Shown one piece after another: positions 51,690-60,304 of a DNA stretch of 64,000 nt. Every line of letters starts with the position of its first letter. The first letter of the stretch is position 1. The position numbers and the translations under genes were made by a program. The stretch lies in NCBI RefSeq assembly GCF_000353285.1, contig NZ_KB731325.1, positions 324,381 through 388,380 on the forward strand, written 5' to 3'. The notes under the pieces were generated by a model. It made no database searches. It was not told the DNA's origin and saw only the letters and a list, made by a program, of their open reading frames with translations. This DNA comes from Leptolyngbya boryana PCC 6306 (GTDB lineage: Bacteria; Cyanobacteriota; Cyanobacteriia; Leptolyngbyales; Leptolyngbyaceae).

Positions 51690-52124
51690 CTACTCGTTGA
51701 AGAAATTCAATTGATCCACCCGCTGATCTTCTTTTTCTTGATCCCGGATGTACTGGCGCACTAATGCCTCATCACGTCCCACCGTCGAGACATAGTATCC
51801 TCTTGCCCAAAAGTGTTGTCCCGTAAAGTTCTTCCGCCGCCCCTGATACGTTCTCGCAATGCTAATCGCACTTTTGCCTTTGATGTATCCCATCACTTGC
51901 GACACCGAGTACTTCGGTGGAATTGAGATCAGCATATGCACATGATCGCTCATCAAATGTCCTTCCTCAATCCGACATTCCTTCTGCGCTGCCAACTCTC
52001 GGAACAATTCGCCTAAATGCTGCCGTAGCTCGTAGTACAACGCTTTTTTTCGATACTTGGGGATGAATACCACATGATATTTGCACTCCCACTTCGTATG
52101 ACTTAAACTTCCGATATCTTTCAT
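51690..52124 (-). CDS. tnpA: IS200/IS605 family Y1 (HUH) transposase TnpA
   Basis: 144 residues from the ATG at 52124. The HUH motif is H-V-H in MSDHVHMLI, and the single catalytic tyrosine is in the QYIRDQE helix region (Y preceding IRDQ). Typical flanks are CKYHVVFIPKYRKK, YSVSQVMGYIKGKSA and GQHFWARGYYVSTVG. Length is normal and the frame intact. It moves single-stranded DNA using end hairpins. An upstream frame extension to 52148 is rejected because it lies in the leader hairpin. Confidence 0.93.
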   Translation of the reverse strand: MKDIGSLSHTKWECKYHVVFIPKYRKKALYYELRQHLGELFRELAAQKECRIEEGHLMSDHVHMLISIPPKYSVSQVMGYIKGKSAISIARTYQGRRKNFTGQHFWARGYYVSTVGRDEALVRQYIRDQEKEDQRVDQLNFFNE

Positions 52125-52127
52125 TTT

Positions 52128-52169
52128 GAGTCTCCTTGCACGAATCACTGTGTTCGTGCAAGGAGACTC
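52128..52169 (-). promoter_or_regulatory. RBS-sequestering hairpin in tnpA leader
   Basis: Perfect 17-bp inverted repeat (GAGTCTCCTTGCACGAA at 52128-52144, its complement at 52153-52169, 8-nt loop) ending three bases before the tnpA ATG. The tnpA ribosome-binding site AAGGAGA is inside the stem. IS200 transposases are known to be silenced by such leader hairpins. Confidence 0.85.
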
Positions 52170-53576: not shown

Positions 53577-54098
53577 TTACTCGATCGTAGTCAAAGCCGT
53601 TTGATAAGCAGTCTGAACTTCAGGACTGAAGCACGCGAAAATCACTTTCTCGATCGTGCCATTGTCTTGCAGAAAGCTGACTGTTTCGCGGATCGCGATC
53701 GTACAAGCTTGCTCGATGGGATAGCCATAAATACCGCAGCTAATCGCTGGAAATGCAACCGTTCTCACGTGATGCAGAGTTGCCAATTTCAAGCTTTCAC
53801 GGTAGCAAGAAGCCAGTAGTTCGGGTTCTCCTTGCGTGCTATCTTGCCAAACCGGGCCGACCGTATGAATCACAAACTTTGCGGGTAGCTGATAGCCTTT
53901 GGTAATCTTGGCTTGTCCAGTTTTACAGCCTCTGAGCATTCGACATTCTTCGAGGAGTTGTGAACCTGCGACGCGGTGAATTGCTCCATCCACGCCACCG
54001 CCACCCAAAAGAGATGTATTTGCAGCATTTACGATCGCATCGACTTCAAGTTTGGTGATATCTGCAATTCTAATTTCAAGTTTGTCGATCGCAGCCAT
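53577..54098 (-). CDS. Macrodomain protein, YmdB-type ADP-ribose/O-acetyl-ADP-ribose hydrolase
   Basis: 173 residues, one complete macrodomain. The ADP-ribose-binding motifs are [24 protein letters not shown] (about 21-44), [11 protein letters not shown] and [13 protein letters not shown], in the MacroD/YmdB arrangement including the catalytic-type Asn and Asp of [14 protein letters not shown]. Such enzymes remove ADP-ribose from Asp/Glu or hydrolyse O-acetyl-ADP-ribose. Single gene, intact. It lies about 6 kb from a WGR-domain gene, another domain linked to ADP-ribosylation. Confidence 0.92.
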
Positions 54099-54264
54099 CT
54101 GGATTTCCTCTCAATGCAACGAAGCAGAAGCTCTACCTTATGAGAATCATAGCCGAAGCAATCTCGCACTCGAAATCCTAATGATAAGAAGAAAATTAAT
54201 ATAGTTCATTTGTATTGATTTATCCAGACAATAGAAGTATTCTAAGAACAGAAAAACCAAAGTA

Positions 54265-55521
54265 ATGATTCATTCTGCACAGCAGCAGTGCGATGTGTTT
54301 CAGGATTTAGCCATGCTAATTCTCGACCCGCCTTCGCAAACTCAACCTGTTGCAGAATCACAGCCTGCTTCGACTGCTAAAACTTCCAAAGCACCGACTG
54401 GTTTCACAATTCGGACGATCGAACGAGATTTACGTCTGTTTCACGAGGAGCGAATGTATTACGCAGAGATCAAAATCTGTGGCGGTGACTCACGAGTTGC
54501 TGCGATCGATGTCGAAGACTTCGCCCCACCTAGCGAAGTTCTGATTGCATGGCGAGCATTAGGGCGTAAAGCAAAACCGCCACAAATCAAGGTCTTTGAA
54601 GAACTGAAGCAAGCGATCGCAGATCTCACTGAAGAACGGCGCAAAATCTATGCTGAATGCACGATCGATCTACTCCCGTATCGTGCGATTCCTGGTTCTA
54701 GTTTTGGTCACTTTATTGATCGATTTCGAGCGTTGCAAGGGCTGAGTGTCGAAAAGCTCAATCAGGTTTTGGCAGCGTATCGATCGTCAAAAGAACGGTG
54801 GTTGCGTGAGGAAATTCAGCCGATGATCGCGGCAGGCCAACTGTGTGATGAGCAAACTCAGCGTCGATTAGAAGTCTATGCAAGACGCTATCCCAAAATC
54901 GAGAAAATTCAGCAGCGATTCGGTGTTCAACTGAAAGGTCCGTTCCGCCTTGAAAGCTTTCAAGATGCAGTTCAACGCGATACAGCCTTGAAGCAATTGG
55001 ATTTGGAACGATCGCAAGCGCAATTAATGCTGACTCAATCTCAAGCAGAACAGCAAAAAGCAGAAACGGAAATTCAAATTGCACAATCTCAGGCAAATGC
55101 AGAACTGAATGCCTTACAGCAGGCATTCAGCTATCAACAGCAACAGATTAGAGGTGCGATCGATCAAAAGATCGTTGAGCTACGGAGTCAAATTCTCAAA
55201 CTGCTCATTCACAACTTGCGAAAGCTTCTGAACAAAGACTACTGCCCTGGCAAACTTCCAACTGGACTAAAGCAACAGTTTCAAAGTTTGGCAGAAAGTG
55301 CTGCTGTTTTGTCTGAGCATGATCACTCACTTGCGGAGGTGCTGACTCACTTAAATCAAGTTCAATCAACTGCAACAAATCAGCGTTCTGAACATGATTT
55401 GCTGCGATCGCAAGCCAGCGATTTGTTAGCCGATCTCGAAGTAAAACTTCAAACTCCAGACCTCGATCGGATTGAATCAGAAGGCATTGATCGATCCGAT
55501 TGGGTCGTATTCGGCGAGTAA
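54265..55521 (+). CDS. Coiled-coil protein of unknown function
   Basis: 418 residues. The disordered N-terminus is followed by GFTIRTIERDLRLFHEERMYYAEIKICGG (a DUF-like start), then a helical region and a strong coiled coil at about 245-310 (LDLERSQAQLMLTQSQAEQQKAETEIQIAQSQANAELNALQQ), and a final helical part. No membrane segment or catalytic motif is visible. The IsrB-type element lies directly after its stop and separates it from the Ycf35-Ycf46 operon, to which it may once have belonged. Confidence 0.6.
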   Translation: MIHSAQQQCDVFQDLAMLILDPPSQTQPVAESQPASTAKTSKAPTGFTIRTIERDLRLFHEERMYYAEIKICGGDSRVAAIDVEDFAPPSEVLIAWRALGRKAKPPQIKVFEELKQAIADLTEERRKIYAECTIDLLPYRAIPGSSFGHFIDRFRALQGLSVEKLNQVLAAYRSSKERWLREEIQPMIAAGQLCDEQTQRRLEVYARRYPKIEKIQQRFGVQLKGPFRLESFQDAVQRDTALKQLDLERSQAQLMLTQSQAEQQKAETEIQIAQSQANAELNALQQAFSYQQQQIRGAIDQKIVELRSQILKLLIHNLRKLLNKDYCPGKLPTGLKQQFQSLAESAAVLSEHDHSLAEVLTHLNQVQSTATNQRSEHDLLRSQASDLLADLEVKLQTPDLDRIESEGIDRSDWVVFGE

Positions 55522-55544
55522 CCATTCAACTTGGAGAGTAACTG

Positions 55545-55736
55545 TCACGTACCCCGCGCTGAAGCGACGGGGCTTGAATAAGCTCAAGCCATAGAGCGAA
55601 CTTCGAGACTAAACACGCGACTAGCTCAGTCCGAAAGGACAACTGAAGATTCTAGTACGTGGCAGTACAACCGACACTAGGAACGCCTCCCTAATTTCTA
55701 GCCGCTCGGAATCTCAGTAGCGAAGGGAAGTACACA
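55545..55736 (+). ncRNA. Omega RNA/HEARO-like RNA upstream of IsrB
   Basis: About 190 nt without an ORF between a stop codon and the IsrB start. Several stems are readable: CCCCG-CGCT-GA-AGCG-A-CGGGG (55552-55572), CTTGAATAAGCTCAAG next to it, GTCC-GAAA-GGAC, and GTACGTGGCAGTAC. HEARO RNAs are known to lie directly upstream of IscB/IsrB genes and act as their guide RNA. The guide part would be its 5' end, reaching into the flanking sequence. Fold and limits are inferred by eye. Confidence 0.65.
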
Positions 55737-56777
55737 ATGAGGCTTATCGCCATGCAATCTGTACCAGTTGTCGATAAAAATCAGCGTCCCTTGATGCCAA
55801 CGACTGCACAACGCGCAGAACGTTGGATCAAATCTGGGAAAGCAACGCCATTTTGGAAGCGCGGTGTGTTCTGTGTTCGACTGAACGTAGAGCCTTCATC
55901 CCGATTCACTCAACCGATTGCAGTCGGGATTGATCCGGGTTCAAAGCGCGAAGCGTTCACGGTTAAGTCAGCAACTCGCACCTATCTCAACATGCAAACT
56001 CATGCTGTTGACTGGGTGAAAGCGGCTGAGGAAGCTTCGACGAATATGCGACGTGCGAGACGGTTTCGTAAGACTCCATGCCGCAAGCCTCGGTTTAACC
56101 GGAAGCGGGGTGGAATTCCACCTTCTACGAAAGCGCGGTGGCAGTGGAAATTACGCATCTGTCATTGGCTGACAAAGCTGTTCCCTGTCATAGCTTTCGT
56201 CGTCGAAGACATCAAAGCGAAGACCTTCAAGAATGGTCGCAAGTGGAACATCATGTTTTCCCCGCTTGAAGTGGGTAAGAAGTGGTTCTATTCAGAGTTA
56301 GAGCGAATTGCAATTCTTCATACCTTGCAAGGTCACGAAACCGCAGAACTTCGGAGTCAGTTAGGACTCAAGAAATCAAAGCAGAAGTTATCAGACAAGT
56401 TTGAAGCGCACTGTGTTGATAGTTGGGTATTAGCGAACTGGTACACCGAAGGACACGATAAGCCTGATAACACTCAGTTAATCGTGATCATTCCGCTCCG
56501 GTTTCACCGTAGACAATTGCACCGATTTCAACCAGGTAAAGGTGCAATTCGTTCACCCTATGGTGGAACGATCTCGGAAGGGTTCAAGCGCGGTGGAATT
56601 GCTAGGCATCCAAAATACGGCATTGTCTACATTGGCGGCGCGTCTAAAGGTCGGGTAAGTCTGCATTCCCTCGAAACAGGTAAGCGGTTGACTCAGAACG
56701 CGAAACCTTCAGATACCAAGTTTTTGTCTTTTAACTCGTGGCGATTCTATGTCCCTGCCGAACAGGTAGGGGGATAA
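55737..56777 (+). CDS. isrB: IsrB: RNA-guided RuvC-only nickase
   Basis: 346 residues. PLMP domain at the N-terminus (RPLMP, 17-21; AERWIKSGKATPF), then RuvC-I VGIDPGSKR with D66. The Arg-rich bridge helix is MRRARRFRKTPCRKPRF (about 104-120), RuvC-II FVVEDIKAK has E157 and RuvC-III EAHCVDSWVL has D228. Between RuvC-II and RuvC-III there is no HNH domain, and total length is about 350, which separates IsrB from IscB. Known IsrB proteins nick the non-target strand under omega-RNA guidance. The frame is intact and the predicted catalytic residues are all present. Confidence 0.88.
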   Translation: MRLIAMQSVPVVDKNQRPLMPTTAQRAERWIKSGKATPFWKRGVFCVRLNVEPSSRFTQPIAVGIDPGSKREAFTVKSATRTYLNMQTHAVDWVKAAEEASTNMRRARRFRKTPCRKPRFNRKRGGIPPSTKARWQWKLRICHWLTKLFPVIAFVVEDIKAKTFKNGRKWNIMFSPLEVGKKWFYSELERIAILHTLQGHETAELRSQLGLKKSKQKLSDKFEAHCVDSWVLANWYTEGHDKPDNTQLIVIIPLRFHRRQLHRFQPGKGAIRSPYGGTISEGFKRGGIARHPKYGIVYIGGASKGRVSLHSLETGKRLTQNAKPSDTKFLSFNSWRFYVPAEQVGG

Positions 56778-56844
56778 AGCCCCGCGTTGTGTTTTCCTCC
56801 CAGACCTGAAGGTGCTGGGTTTCCAACACTATCGGAGATTTCTT

Positions 56845-57366
56845 ATGAGCCACTTTGCAACGATTAGCACTCAACTGAACAACCGAGATGCTCTGATCGA
56901 AGGATTGAGAGCATTACTGACTGAAAAAGGAATTGCTGCCGAAGTTGAAGTTCATGACCATCCGACTGCACTGATTAGCGACTACGATCGACGCAATCAA
57001 GCCCAAGCCGAAATCATCATTCGTCGCCAACATCTGCACACCCCCCAACGTCAAGCACAGTTGGATGTCGGTTTCCGATGGAATGAGCAGCAGGACTGCT
57101 TCGCGCTTGTAGCTGATGCTTGGGACTTTAACCAAAATGCGCTCGGTTTAGCCTTTCTGAGAACGCAACGCCAAAAAGGCACCCTCAGCCCGATCGAGCA
57201 TTTTCGTGAAGAAGTGCAGTTTCACCATGACGAAGCAGTGATTCAGCATAACTATCCGGCACATCTTTGGACTCGTGAAGATGTCGTACTAGACGATGGC
57301 TCGATCGAAACGACGCTGACCCAAGTTGTTCAGATCTCAAGCGAAACCGTTGGCAGTGCTTGGTAA
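56845..57366 (+). CDS. Ycf35/DUF1257 family protein
   Basis: 173 residues from the ATG at 56845, with GGAGA about 7 bp upstream; the frame back to 56812 crosses the IsrB element end and is rejected. The start MSHFATISTQLNNRDALIEGLRALL and the centre DVGFRWNEQQDCFALVADAWDF are hallmarks of the DUF1257/Ycf35 family of cyanobacteria and chloroplasts. Function is unknown. It heads a five-gene run with DUF2997, Ycf46-like, Ycf34-like and WGR genes, and the IsrB element sits immediately before it. Confidence 0.87.
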   Translation: MSHFATISTQLNNRDALIEGLRALLTEKGIAAEVEVHDHPTALISDYDRRNQAQAEIIIRRQHLHTPQRQAQLDVGFRWNEQQDCFALVADAWDFNQNALGLAFLRTQRQKGTLSPIEHFREEVQFHHDEAVIQHNYPAHLWTREDVVLDDGSIETTLTQVVQISSETVGSAW

Positions 57367-57384
57367 TTCATTGGAGGTAGATCA

Positions 57385-57576
57385 ATGACTCAGATCAAAA
57401 TTGTCCGCAAACGGGGACAAGCTATGAAAGTCGAAGTCATGGGGCATCAAGGAGCAAGCTGTACCCAACTGACAAAGCCGTTAACTCAACTGGGTGAAAC
57501 CGAAGTGGAACTGAAACCCGAATACCATGAACAACCCGTTCAAGTGAACACTGATATCTCGATTGGAGGCTGGTAA
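57385..57576 (+). CDS. DUF2997 family small protein
   Basis: 63 residues. QIKIVRKRGQAMKVEVMGHQGASCTQLTKPLTQLGETEVELKPEYH has the pattern of DUF2997: a strand, a short G-x-x-C-x-x-L-T helix (cysteine in GASCTQLT), then a strand. It is regularly found next to DUF1257 genes in cyanobacteria. GGAGGT lies 8 bp upstream of the ATG. Two genes on lies the Ycf46-like ATPase, 2 bp after its stop. Function is unknown. Confidence 0.8.
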   Translation: MTQIKIVRKRGQAMKVEVMGHQGASCTQLTKPLTQLGETEVELKPEYHEQPVQVNTDISIGGW

Positions 57577-57578
57577 TA

Positions 57579-59270
57579 ATGGCATTCGATGTTGCGCAAC
57601 TGAAGCTGTATTTCAACGCCAAAATGTCTACGATCGCGATCGATACCCGAACTGCGTCGGAACCGGATCTCATTTTGCGATCGCTCGTCACAGAGTATGC
57701 CATCCCGAAGAACTTACAGGTGCTTCACTGGGATGCGTCGCTAGGCGTGAGTGGACTTGAAACGCTGACCCCGCAGTACAAAGGCAAACAACTCACCGGA
57801 GTGGTTGCTGTCCCAGGCGTGAAAATCGCGACAAATCTCCACATGGTTGAAGCGGTGTTGCGCTACATCGAATCTGCTTGTCAAACTCAAGCTAAAGGTG
57901 AATCCGATCAACAATCTCGCCCGACTCTATTTGTGCTACGAGATCTTTACCGCTACATTGCAGCTAGGGACTCAAATCCCGCTTTTGTGAGACTGTCGGT
58001 ACGTGTGTTTAATTTGCTGAAGCGATCGCAAAACTCCTTGATCATTTTGCACGATGGTTTGCGAACACCGCCAATTTTCCAAGATCTGGTGGTGGATATG
58101 CAAAATCCCTTACCCTTAGCGACGGAAGCTGAGGCAATCTTCGAACACAGGCTCAAAGCCCTTCAACGCAGTGCTAAAGCTCAATCTCAATCGTTTGAAG
58201 TGAACTTGTCCGAAGACGATCGCAAACGTCTCATTCGCGCATTGCTCGGCATGACTCCCGAAGGCATAGATGACGCGATTCAACTGGTTGCAATCAAGCG
58301 TAAACGACTCGAAGCACAGTCGATCGATGACATTCTCGAAATCAAAAAGCAACAGTTTGCAGCACGCGGAATTCAATATGCCAAAGCACCCGATGTTCCA
58401 GTGAAAGGAATGCCCGTGCTGCAATCTTGGGCAATCACACAAGCGGCACTTCTAGAACCAGAAGCACAGGAAAGCTGGAATCTACCTTTTCCGCGAGGTG
58501 TTTTACTCGTAGGCTACGGTGGAACGGGTAAAACACTCGGAATTAAGTGTCTTGCGAAAGAATGGGGACTGCCGATTCTGATCCTCGATACCAGTAAGCT
58601 CGTGCAAAAAGAACTTGGAGCATCAGAAGAAAATCTCAGACAAACGATCGCAGCAGCCGAAGCAATGGCTCCCTCGATTCTGTTCATTGATGAAATGGAC
58701 AAAATGTTCGATGGTGGAACTGGCAGCGAATCTGATGGCGGGACAACAAAACGGATGTTTGGCTACTTCCTGCAATGGTTTCAAGAACATACCTCAGCGG
58801 TCTTCGTAGCAGCAACAGCAAACCGTCCCGGATGTTTCAAACCAGAACTTTTACGGCGATTCTCTGAGGTGTATCACGTTCCATTACCAAATTTAGCGGC
58901 TCGTCGTGAAATCTTCCAAGTTCAGATGCAACGCTACAAATTGCTGAGTCCTAATGCTGATCTCGAAAATCCAGCCGTTCAAGCCTTAATCGAACCGCTT
59001 GCCCGTCACACCGATCGCTATACCGGAAGCGAAATTCACGACATCGTGTTTGCTTGTGCGGCTCAAGCCTATGCTCAACGCCGACCTGGACAAGTCACGA
59101 TCGAAGATCTCCACGCGCAAATTGAACGCAAACCACCGCGATCCCTAGGTGATGCTGAAGAACTTGCAGCCCTCGATCGTTGGGCACGAAACGGACAAGC
59201 ATTATGTGTTGCACCGGAGATCGAGGAGCAAATTGAAAGCGATCGCACTGTCGTTTGGGAAGAAAACTAG
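57579..59270 (+). CDS. Ycf46-like AAA+ ATPase
   Basis: 563 residues. An N-terminal helical/Rossmann region of about 280 residues (FNLLKRSQNSLIILHDG) precedes one AAA+ domain: Walker A GYGGTGKT (about 312), Walker B ILFIDEMDKMF (about 367), sensor-1 AATANRP, arginine region PELLRRFSEVYHVP, sensor-2 GSEI. This is the layout of Ycf46, a cyanobacterial and chloroplast AAA protein whose role is linked to CO2 use or photosynthesis regulation in Synechocystis. Start 2 bp after the DUF2997 stop, so coupled. Confidence 0.88.
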   Translation: MAFDVAQLKLYFNAKMSTIAIDTRTASEPDLILRSLVTEYAIPKNLQVLHWDASLGVSGLETLTPQYKGKQLTGVVAVPGVKIATNLHMVEAVLRYIESACQTQAKGESDQQSRPTLFVLRDLYRYIAARDSNPAFVRLSVRVFNLLKRSQNSLIILHDGLRTPPIFQDLVVDMQNPLPLATEAEAIFEHRLKALQRSAKAQSQSFEVNLSEDDRKRLIRALLGMTPEGIDDAIQLVAIKRKRLEAQSIDDILEIKKQQFAARGIQYAKAPDVPVKGMPVLQSWAITQAALLEPEAQESWNLPFPRGVLLVGYGGTGKTLGIKCLAKEWGLPILILDTSKLVQKELGASEENLRQTIAAAEAMAPSILFIDEMDKMFDGGTGSESDGGTTKRMFGYFLQWFQEHTSAVFVAATANRPGCFKPELLRRFSEVYHVPLPNLAARREIFQVQMQRYKLLSPNADLENPAVQALIEPLARHTDRYTGSEIHDIVFACAAQAYAQRRPGQVTIEDLHAQIERKPPRSLGDAEELAALDRWARNGQALCVAPEIEEQIESDRTVVWEEN

Positions 59271-59279
59271 GAGGCTGCG

Positions 59280-59489
59280 ATGTGTATTTGTGTGAATTGC
59301 CAATTTGTCGATCGCTGCATTGCATATTACCAAGTTGAAACCAGTCATCAAAAACCTCATCAAAATCTATCTCCTGATTTTCAGCCGCGTCAGCCTCAAA
59401 TCAGAGTTCATCGGCAACCCGCGCAGATGGAATTCGACATTGTGAATTGCGGCAGTTTCCAAGCACAAGAAAATTTGTCAAACGTTTGA
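59280..59489 (+). CDS. Ycf34-like Fe-S protein
   Basis: 69 residues. The opening MCICVNCQFVDRCIAYYQVETSHQKPH is the Ycf34 signature, with C2, C4, C7 and C13. A further Cys lies in the C-terminal FDIVNCGSF. Synechocystis Ycf34 binds an Fe-S cluster through such cysteines. Shorter at the C-terminus than the usual 80 or more residues. AGGAGG lies 6 bp upstream of the ATG, and the gene is 9 bp after the Ycf46-like gene. Confidence 0.85.
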   Translation: MCICVNCQFVDRCIAYYQVETSHQKPHQNLSPDFQPRQPQIRVHRQPAQMEFDIVNCGSFQAQENLSNV

Positions 59490-59500
59490 GGAAATTTGTC

Positions 59501-60304
59501 ATGACTTCCGATCAGTTTCCAGATCTTTCGAGTGCGATCGCCTCGGTTCATCTGATTTGTGTAGACAGTCGTAGCAATCACAACAAATTCTGGCAAGGCT
59601 ATGTTTTACTCGATGGGACAGTATTTGCAAAATATGGACGAGTGAATTACAAGGGACAAACCCACTCCTATGTCTGCGGCAATATCGTAGAGGCACAAAC
59701 GAAATTACAACAAATTGTGCGGGACAAAAAAGCCAAGGGCTACATGGAGGCAGAAGTCGATCGCACTCCCAATCAATCGATCAATTTTGAAGTTCTTGGC
59801 AAACGCGCCAAATCGCTCAAAGCGCAAATTCATCACCTCGCAATCGATGCCGCGATTATTCACGAACAGACCTCAATTCGATTCAATCCAGAGAAAGGGC
59901 AGTACCAAACTGGATTAGGGGCAGTGACTCATCAAACGGTGGCTCACGCTCAAACCGCCCTTGATCGCGTCTTGTATGCTCAGGAATCACGAAATAGACA
60001 GGACTTAGCTCAGGCGGTTGAGGCTTATTTGCGCTTGATCCCATTGCCTGTAGGCATGTCGCTGAACCCTACAGCATTAATCGGAAACATAAATCAGGTT
60101 GAAACTCAGCGACACGTTCTAGAAACTCTGAAAACAGGACTCGATCGCATTGCTGAAATTCGCAGACAAATCCAGGTTGAACTCGCTGCCCAAGTTGTTG
60201 AGCAAACGGAGCGATCGTTCTGGATGAACTGGGGTGAAACAGAAGTAGCCGGAATAGAAATTGAATTCAGCGACACGCGCTCAGATTGTGTATTGTGGGA
60301 CTAA
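59501..60304 (+). CDS. WGR-domain protein
   Basis: 267 residues from the ATG at 59501, with GAGGAAA upstream; the frame back to 59447 overlaps the Ycf34-like gene. Residues about 12-80 (HNKFWQGYVLLDGTVFAKYGRVNYKGQ, then EAQTKLQQIVRDKKAKGY) match the WGR domain, with YGR in place of WGR. A helical domain follows. WGR domains occur in PARPs, bacterial MolR and DNA-linked proteins and probably bind nucleic acid. Last gene of the Ycf35-Ycf46 run, 11 bp after the previous stop. Confidence 0.8.
   Translation: MTSDQFPDLSSAIASVHLICVDSRSNHNKFWQGYVLLDGTVFAKYGRVNYKGQTHSYVCGNIVEAQTKLQQIVRDKKAKGYMEAEVDRTPNQSINFEVLGKRAKSLKAQIHHLAIDAAIIHEQTSIRFNPEKGQYQTGLGAVTHQTVAHAQTALDRVLYAQESRNRQDLAQAVEAYLRLIPLPVGMSLNPTALIGNINQVETQRHVLETLKTGLDRIAEIRRQIQVELAAQVVEQTERSFWMNWGETEVAGIEIEFSDTRSDCVLWD

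What the first reader, a model, noticed from the sequence alone, without database searches (positions are those of the whole stretch)
55545..56830. Intact IsrB element with omega-RNA leader
A 346-residue PLMP-RuvC protein without HNH and with all RuvC acids, preceded by about 190 nt of structured RNA, is a compact RNA-guided nickase. The guide should come from the 5' flank near 55.53 kb. Such intact HEARO-type loci are of evolutionary (Cas9 ancestry) interest.
Basis: partly seen in the sequence, partly recalled or inferred. Interest (0 to 1): 0.65.

Follow-up and report, generated by a model that had tools for sequence, protein, structure and literature searches.

The report
IsrB element at a start codon
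This is an intact small mobile element that encodes an RNA-guided DNA-nicking protein related to the ancestor of Cas9; it has slipped in exactly between a gene's ribosome-binding site and its start codon, and its relatives tend to sit at the same kind of spot.

Summary
Window 55544-56844 is a 1301-bp element: a guide-RNA scaffold (55544-55751), an isrB gene (55752-56777, most likely 341 aa; 346 aa from an upstream ATG that the closest relative lacks) and a hairpin right end. The protein matches the solved nickase DtIsrB better than any IscB, has all RuvC residues, no HNH, and DtIsrB's two TAM-reading residues. The RNA is a weak HEARO match (33 bits, cut-off 83), but an alignment of 34 leaders supports a 53-pair structure by covariation. 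A congener has the empty site, which fixes the ends: guide = the 20 nt before 55544, TAM = ATGA at 56845. That ATGA is the start codon of a DUF1257 gene; the element split it from its ribosome-binding site and brings a new one (GGAG, 56834). Family-wide, 33 of 48 distinct insertion sites lie at such gene starts, against 145 of 1505 background ATGA. I propose that, since the guide lies outside the element, these elements need a host promoter, and a start codon supplies one without killing the gene. The element itself is an ordinary IsrB; the siting is the interesting part. Activity and expression are untested.

The parts
55524..55543 (+). predicted 20-nt guide region (host DNA, outside the element); contains the displaced ribosome-binding site GGAG 55533-55536 of the downstream gene
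   Evidence: no conservation seen upstream of 55544 in the relatives' leaders (56 aligned; printed output was cut, about 30 leaders read); empty site in congener L080 reads ...TGGAGGAAC TATGAG; 20-nt length taken from the DtIsrB complex (PMC9581776)
55544..56844 (+). whole IsrB element, 1301 bp
   Evidence: junctions from the empty site in L080, with one base of ambiguity; left end GTCAC recurs in relatives
55544..55751 (+). omega-RNA (HEARO-like) scaffold
   Evidence: Rfam HEARO E 8.5e-5, below cut-off; 53-pair structure with 93.5% of cells paired, 34 pairs with changes on both sides, 0 of 500 shuffles
55552..55572 (+). left subterminal hairpin
   Evidence: fold of the left end; its pairs covary in the alignment
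55752..56777 (+). isrB, 341 aa (alternative start 55737, 346 aa)
   Evidence: dN/dS 0.041 against L059 over 330 codons
56799..56819 (+). right-end hairpin
   Evidence: fold of the right end
56834..56837 (+). GGAG, Shine-Dalgarno-like core supplied by the element, 7 nt before the ATG
   Evidence: sequence; 23 of 48 distinct element ends carry such a core against 309 of 4976 internal windows
56845..56848 (+). ATGA: predicted TAM (NTGA) and start codon of the downstream gene
   Evidence: empty site; ATGA right end in relatives; R312/Q315 match DtIsrB R323/Q326
54265..55521 (+). upstream host gene (418 aa); its stop codon ends 22 nt before the element
   Evidence: both flanks lie side by side in L080
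56845..57366 (+). downstream host gene, DUF1257, 173 aa from this ATG
   Evidence: 79% identical homologue aligned over residues 1-173 in congener G006

Best explanation
An intact, single-copy IsrB (OMEGA nickase) element. Shown by sequence: ends, omega-RNA, isrB, right end, exact insertion between a gene's ribosome-binding site and its ATGA start codon. Inferred: transcription of the host operon runs through the flank into the element, so that the last about 20 nt of flank become the guide of the omega-RNA. IsrB binds this RNA and nicks the non-target strand of the uninterrupted allele (guide sequence followed by ATGA) on a sister chromosome or an element-free copy; repair from the occupied copy restores the element. 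The occupied allele is safe because guide and TAM are 1.3 kb apart. The element ends in a ribosome-binding site so that the downstream gene is still translated. Because the guide is outside the element, no promoter inside it can make the full RNA; sense insertion just before a start codon places it behind a host promoter, which would explain why the family favours start codons. The confidence below is for identity, anatomy and RNA-guided nicking; promoter capture alone I put at about 0.4.
For: IsrB identity. Intact and selected: dN/dS 0.041 against L059, dS near saturation. RNA. Empty site; the congener G006 has no match to this protein. TAM: DtIsrB cuts TTGA and ATGA targets (NTGA), cyanobacterial CwIsrB and DsIsrB read NTG (PMC9581776, passages and sections 5, 7, 8); R312xxQ315 corresponds to R323xxQ326. 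No exact second target for the 13 guide bases next to the TAM: of 14 places in the genome within two mismatches of TTGGAGAGTAACTNTG, the only one within one mismatch is the element's own flank. Start codons: 33 of 48 distinct sites gene-start-like, 27 of 39 with the automatic right-end rule only, against 145 of 1505 background ATGA; with gene-interrupting positions set aside, start:intergenic 30:9 against 87:308. Pfam domains in 8 of 10 downstream proteins tested, four of them with a domain that begins within the first 40 residues. Element-borne Shine-Dalgarno core: 23 of 48 against 309 of 4976.
Against: No expression or nicking data. HEARO cut-off not reached in the window or in 15 relatives. 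No mobilising transposase found: the element has none; 73 IsrB loci (flanks up to 2.5 kb) gave no match to three TnpA proteins of this genome, and the genome's four TnpA loci share only 10-11-nt chance-level matches with the element's ends, so it may be stranded. Nine two-mismatch places keep an NTG next to the guide match (the backward control pattern gave 7 places), so weak off-targets are not excluded. Promoter capture is only one reading: a TnpB family with the same tetranucleotide on the other strand also shows some start-codon excess, 6 of 17 against 34 of 280, which fits plain avoidance of damage. The displaced flanks are not enriched for Shine-Dalgarno cores (6 of 49 against 110 of 1505, p 0.26), and element cores are about as common at sites without a gene (6 of 15) as with one (17 of 33). 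15 of 48 sites are not gene starts; a second classifier put 10 of 49 inside ORFs. One full-length locus, L015, has GATC where the others have ATGA and was left out of the counts.
Confidence: 0.8

Rival explanations
1. The start-codon siting is only survivorship: insertions before any ATGA happen at random, and those just before a start codon hurt least, so they remain. No promoter capture is needed.
For: A TnpB family with target TCAT (ATGA on the other strand) in genome G063 also shows 6 of 17 gene-start sites against 34 of 280 background (p 0.016). Element Shine-Dalgarno cores do not depend on whether a gene follows.
Against: IsrB stays enriched when only harmless positions are compared (30:9 against 87:308), and exceeds the TnpB control (34 of 49 against 6 of 17, Fisher p 0.02; one genome, one family, uncorrected).
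Confidence: 0.4
2. The element is a stranded relic: IsrB and its RNA are intact, but no transposase moves it and the guide no longer has an empty allele to act on. (Compatible with the identity given above.)
For: Single copy of protein, RNA and right end in the genome; no TnpA with matching ends found.
Against: dN/dS 0.041 against L059 speaks for selection on function in the lineage; it says nothing about the last steps in this genome. Trans-mobilisation or a TnpA outside this search is possible.
Confidence: 0.35
3. Domesticated regulator: the RNA-guided complex binds host start sites and regulates genes rather than maintaining a transposon.
For: The guide is the translation-start region of a host gene.
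Against: The RuvC catalytic residues are kept; no second site within one mismatch of the guide pattern; relatives sit before unrelated genes.
Confidence: 0.05

Closest known systems
DtIsrB of Desulfovirgula thermocuniculi (PDB 8dmb)
   Same: PLMP, split RuvC, bridge helix, no HNH, TI domain with RxxQ TAM readers, 5' guide RNA, NTGA TAM
   Different: about 30% identity; scaffold here 208 nt, DtIsrB RNA 284 nt with its 20-nt guide
CwIsrB and DsIsrB, cyanobacterial IsrBs with group-B2 RNAs (PMC9581776)
   Same: cyanobacterial origin, NTG TAM; pseudoknots between hairpin loops and between a loop and a strand near the RNA's 3' end, as in the published IsrB models in general
   Different: their sequences were not held here, so orthology and RNA subgroup were not tested
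HEARO RNA, Rfam RF02033
   Same: model aligns end to end exactly from the left end 55544
   Different: 33.4 bits against a cut-off of 83; insertions of 22 and 16 nt and one gap of 46 model positions
IscB
   Same: PLMP, RuvC, RNA at the 5' side
   Different: no HNH; NCBIfam IscB model 86 bits against a cut-off of 175
TnpB elements with TCAT target (genome G063)
   Same: same target tetranucleotide
   Different: guide at the other end of the element (recalled); target read on the other strand; fewer start-codon sites

Membership tests
IsrB | PLMP domain at the N-terminus | tested here: met
   PLMP motif at residues 13-16; L14 M15 P16 invariant and P13 nearly so in 24 sequences
IsrB | RuvC I-III catalytic residues | tested here: met
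   D61 and E152 invariant; H220 and D223 in 23 of 24, missing only in L002, which has an in-frame deletion there
IsrB | no HNH domain between RuvC II and III | tested here: met
   67 residues between E152 and H220, collinear with DtIsrB; model pLDDT 78, best fold 8dmb
IsrB | arginine-rich bridge helix | tested here: met
   RRXRR Pfam 108 bits; helix 85-105 in the model
IsrB | TI domain reading NTGA | tested here: met
   R312/Q315 aligned to R323/Q326; ATGA at the empty site. Binding itself not measured
IsrB | 5' omega-RNA with guide from the flank | tested here: met
   covariation, left boundary; expression not tested
IsrB | RNA-guided nicking of the non-target strand | not testable with these tools
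   needs biochemistry
HEARO RNA RF02033 | Rfam gathering score 83 | tested here: not met
   33.4 bits in evalue mode, none at gathering
IscB | HNH domain | tested here: not met
   NCBIfam cut-off not reached
autonomous IS200/IS605 element | own TnpA | tested here: not met
   isrB is the only ORF of 80 aa or more that lies wholly inside 55544-56844 on either strand
group-B2 omega-RNA (CwIsrB, DsIsrB) | same stem order and pseudoknots as the published models | tested here: inconclusive
   pseudoknot 205-209/244-248 covaries; 171-174/201-204 pairs in 95% of cells but changes on one side only; the published models are figures that are not held

The most novel reading that the evidence does not exclude
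IsrB elements are start-codon specialists: the ATGA TAM and an element-borne ribosome-binding site let them sit between a gene's leader and its start codon, borrowing the host promoter to make a guide RNA whose 5' end lies outside the element while keeping the host gene, even a biosynthetic one, translated. Guide location (5' for IsrB, 3' for TnpB) would then dictate where an RNA-guided element can live.
Probability: 0.4. Interest if true: 0.68.

Novelty: new member of a known kind. Interest (0 to 1): 0.47.

Why it matters
IsrB is among the simplest relatives of the Cas9 line, and how an element with a nick-only enzyme and no promoter of its own for the guide persists is, to my knowledge, open. 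Start-codon siting gives a concrete, testable answer and a rule for finding likely active copies: a GTCAC left end in a gene's leader and a right end that closes on an ATGA start codon, often after a GGAG-like core.

Tried and rejected
Rfam at gathering scores found nothing in the window and no HEARO in 15 relatives; in evalue mode 4 of 7 relatives showed HEARO at the left end (L065, L027, L010, L004), three (L059, L033, L051) did not. RNAalifold alone missed the outer stem, two short stems and the pseudoknots; I added them from the HEARO alignment and a column-pair scan of the same alignment, so the structure was partly chosen on the data that test it. That the displaced flanks are ribosome-binding sites in general: not supported (6 of 49), although it is clear in this window. 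That element Shine-Dalgarno cores are tuned to gene sites: not supported. TnpB loci of G038 (20 fetched) and of G051, G082, G072, G079, G066 and G052 (36 fetched) were not used as controls: other left ends or no clear boundary; two loci with TCAT (L199, L200) were not scored. Genome G055 has a second PLMP-RuvC family (33-34% identity over residues 4-146, not checked for HNH) whose copies end in another motif, and one 39% identical over residues 1-231 (3 copies, 95-97% identical to one another, also not checked for HNH) that ends at ATGA with following ORFs of 192, 4 and 260 aa. Literature: searches gave listings only (titles, counts, starts of abstracts); none pointed to start-codon insertion of these elements, which is no proof that the texts lack it. 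In PMC9755519 (passages) and PMC9581776 (passages and sections 5, 7, 8) the term 'start codon' does not occur. From memory, the 2009 paper that named HEARO reports integration next to ATGA or GTGA; it is not held, nor is the 2016 ISC paper, so the ATGA preference itself should not be called new.

Rows dropped before the counts: of 73 loci (L001-L073, L001 being the window's own) 57 were full length; 6 of these were left out (L015 without ATGA at the expected place; L032, L042, L043 without a recognised right end; L045 cut off; L063 without a recognised left end), leaving 51 sites; L030, L036 and L018 were removed as repeats, leaving 48. In 9 of the 48 the right end was picked by eye (L003, L041, L044, L046, L048, L049, L050, L052, L065); for L041 this replaced the automatic choice. 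Left ends were picked among several candidates in a few loci. The automatic rule looks for ATGA, so it cannot itself prove ATGA: it matched 43 of 57 loci. In the ORF scan overlapping ORFs could be missed, so I rely for that point.

Full report
What is there. The window lies in a 7.26-Mb genome in five contigs, probably cyanobacterial to judge by the labelled IsrB relatives; the genome itself is unnamed. A 346-aa ORF runs from 55737 to 56777. Pfam calls it RRXRR (108 bits). Its best solved relative is the OMEGA nickase DtIsrB (E 2.9e-39), well ahead of IscBs; a profile of the window protein and 23 relatives reaches 2.5e-59. Relatives align from the second ATG at 55752, and the closest (L059, Kastovskya adunca, 87%) has no ATG at 55737, so 341 aa is the likelier product.

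IsrB and not IscB. In 24 sequences D61 and E152 are invariant; H220 and D223 are missing only in L002, which has a deletion there. The stretch between RuvC II and III has no room for HNH and is collinear with DtIsrB. An AlphaFold2 model from the alignment (pLDDT 78, pTM 0.67) matches DtIsrB best by Foldseek (E 2.9e-24) and by VIA-align (Z 22.7, 292 residues, 5.6 A); several IscBs come within about one to three Z units, so the fold alone does not separate them; the missing HNH does. R312 and Q315 fall on DtIsrB R323 and Q326, which read the third and fourth TAM bases (PMC9581776 section 7). Against L059 dN/dS is 0.041 over 330 codons, with dS near saturation.

The RNA. Rfam's HEARO model aligns end to end from 55544 to 55735 at 33.4 bits, E 8.5e-5, below its cut-off of 83. 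I therefore aligned 34 leaders, the window's and 33 others. RNAalifold gave 31 pairs, 25 of them with double changes. With an outer stem, two short stems and two pseudoknots added, the 53 pairs are formed in 93.5% of cells, 34 have changes on both sides, and none of 500 shuffles reaches any of the five measures; sliding by one to three columns drops pairing to 34-45%. The outer stem is the weakest (78.9%), with one pair broken in 29 of 34. The pseudoknot of columns 205-209 with 244-248 has four of five pairs with double changes; the other (171-174 with 201-204) is paired in 95% of cells but varies on one side only, so covariation does not prove it.

The ends. A congener (G006, locus L080) has the same neighbourhood and no match to IsrB. 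Its site reads ...TGGAGGAAC TATGAGTC; the window reads ...TTGGAGAGTAACT, then GTCAC...TTCTT, then ATGAGCC. The element is thus 55544-56844 with one base of ambiguity. It begins 22 nt after a stop codon and ends exactly before the ATG of a DUF1257 gene, whose homologue aligns from residue 1. It separates the gene from its GGAG (55533-55536) and offers another GGAG (56834-56837) seven bases before the ATG. The predicted guide is 55524-55543 and the TAM ATGA 56845-56848, in line with NTGA for DtIsrB and NTG for two cyanobacterial IsrBs. Of 14 places in the genome within two mismatches of a 16-letter guide-plus-TAM pattern, only the element's own flank comes within one; nine of the two-mismatch places keep NTG, and the backward control pattern gave seven places.

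Start codons across the family. From 73 loci I could define both ends in 51, of which 48 are distinct (rows dropped are told under Tried and rejected). In 33 of 48 the ATGA begins an ORF of at least 60 aa with little open frame before it in the rebuilt empty site; 145 of 1505 other ATGA in the same flanks do so. With the automatic rule alone it is 27 of 39. A second classifier that sets gene-interrupting positions aside gave 30 start to 9 intergenic against 87 to 308, with 10 of 49 sites inside ORFs. Eight of ten downstream proteins tested have Pfam domains, among them a LeuA-like one (domain from residue 9) and an OMP-decarboxylase/phosphoribosyltransferase one. A Shine-Dalgarno core lies at the right place in 23 of 48 element ends, against 309 of 4976 internal windows; it is about as frequent where no gene follows, so it looks like a fixed part of the element rather than a local adaptation.

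Why. The guide lies outside the element, so a promoter for the whole RNA must too. I infer that sense insertion just before a start codon supplies one. As a control I took a TnpB family of genome G063 whose target is TCAT, the same tetranucleotide on the other strand: 6 of 17 measurable copies (of 20 fetched) lie at a start codon, against 34 of 280 background. That is less than IsrB (p 0.02, uncorrected, one genome, perhaps younger copies) but more than background, so avoidance of damage explains part of the pattern. A multi-copy IsrB-like family in G055 also ends at ATGA, before an ORF of 190 aa or more in 2 of 3 copies.

Mobility. Apart from isrB the element has no ORF of 80 aa or more and so no transposase. 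The genome has four TnpA genes, none with clearly similar ends, and a single copy of the protein, the RNA and the right end. It may depend on an unseen TnpA or be stranded. The nick-and-repair maintenance model is inference by analogy with the published OMEGA nucleases (recalled).

Verdict. The start-codon siting with a built-in ribosome-binding site is the part worth following. The search listings I saw pointed to no paper on it, but listings show little text and two key older papers are not held.

Noticed in passing
51690-52148 (-): IS200-like Y1 TnpA; a copy with the same Pfam score lies at G000:C2:224447.
   Followed up: partly
53577-60304: The interrupted operon (418-aa gene, DUF1257, AAA ATPase) is flanked by a Macro-domain gene (-) and a gene with WGR and a weak PARP-regulatory match (+), which may hint at an ADP-ribose link.
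   Followed up: no
L002:2513-3412: An isrB with an in-frame deletion that removes the RuvC III H and D but keeps the ORF: possibly a natural dead IsrB.
   Followed up: no
L028 and L030: Two cyanobacteria (Scytonema, Brasilonema) carry IsrB before the same downstream gene start with different left flanks.
   Followed up: no
L004, L032, L058: Relatives of this IsrB (55-69% identity) in MAGs labelled Gracilibacteria, Kiritimatiellae and Lokiarchaeota: transfer or binning error.
   Followed up: no
   Followed up: partly
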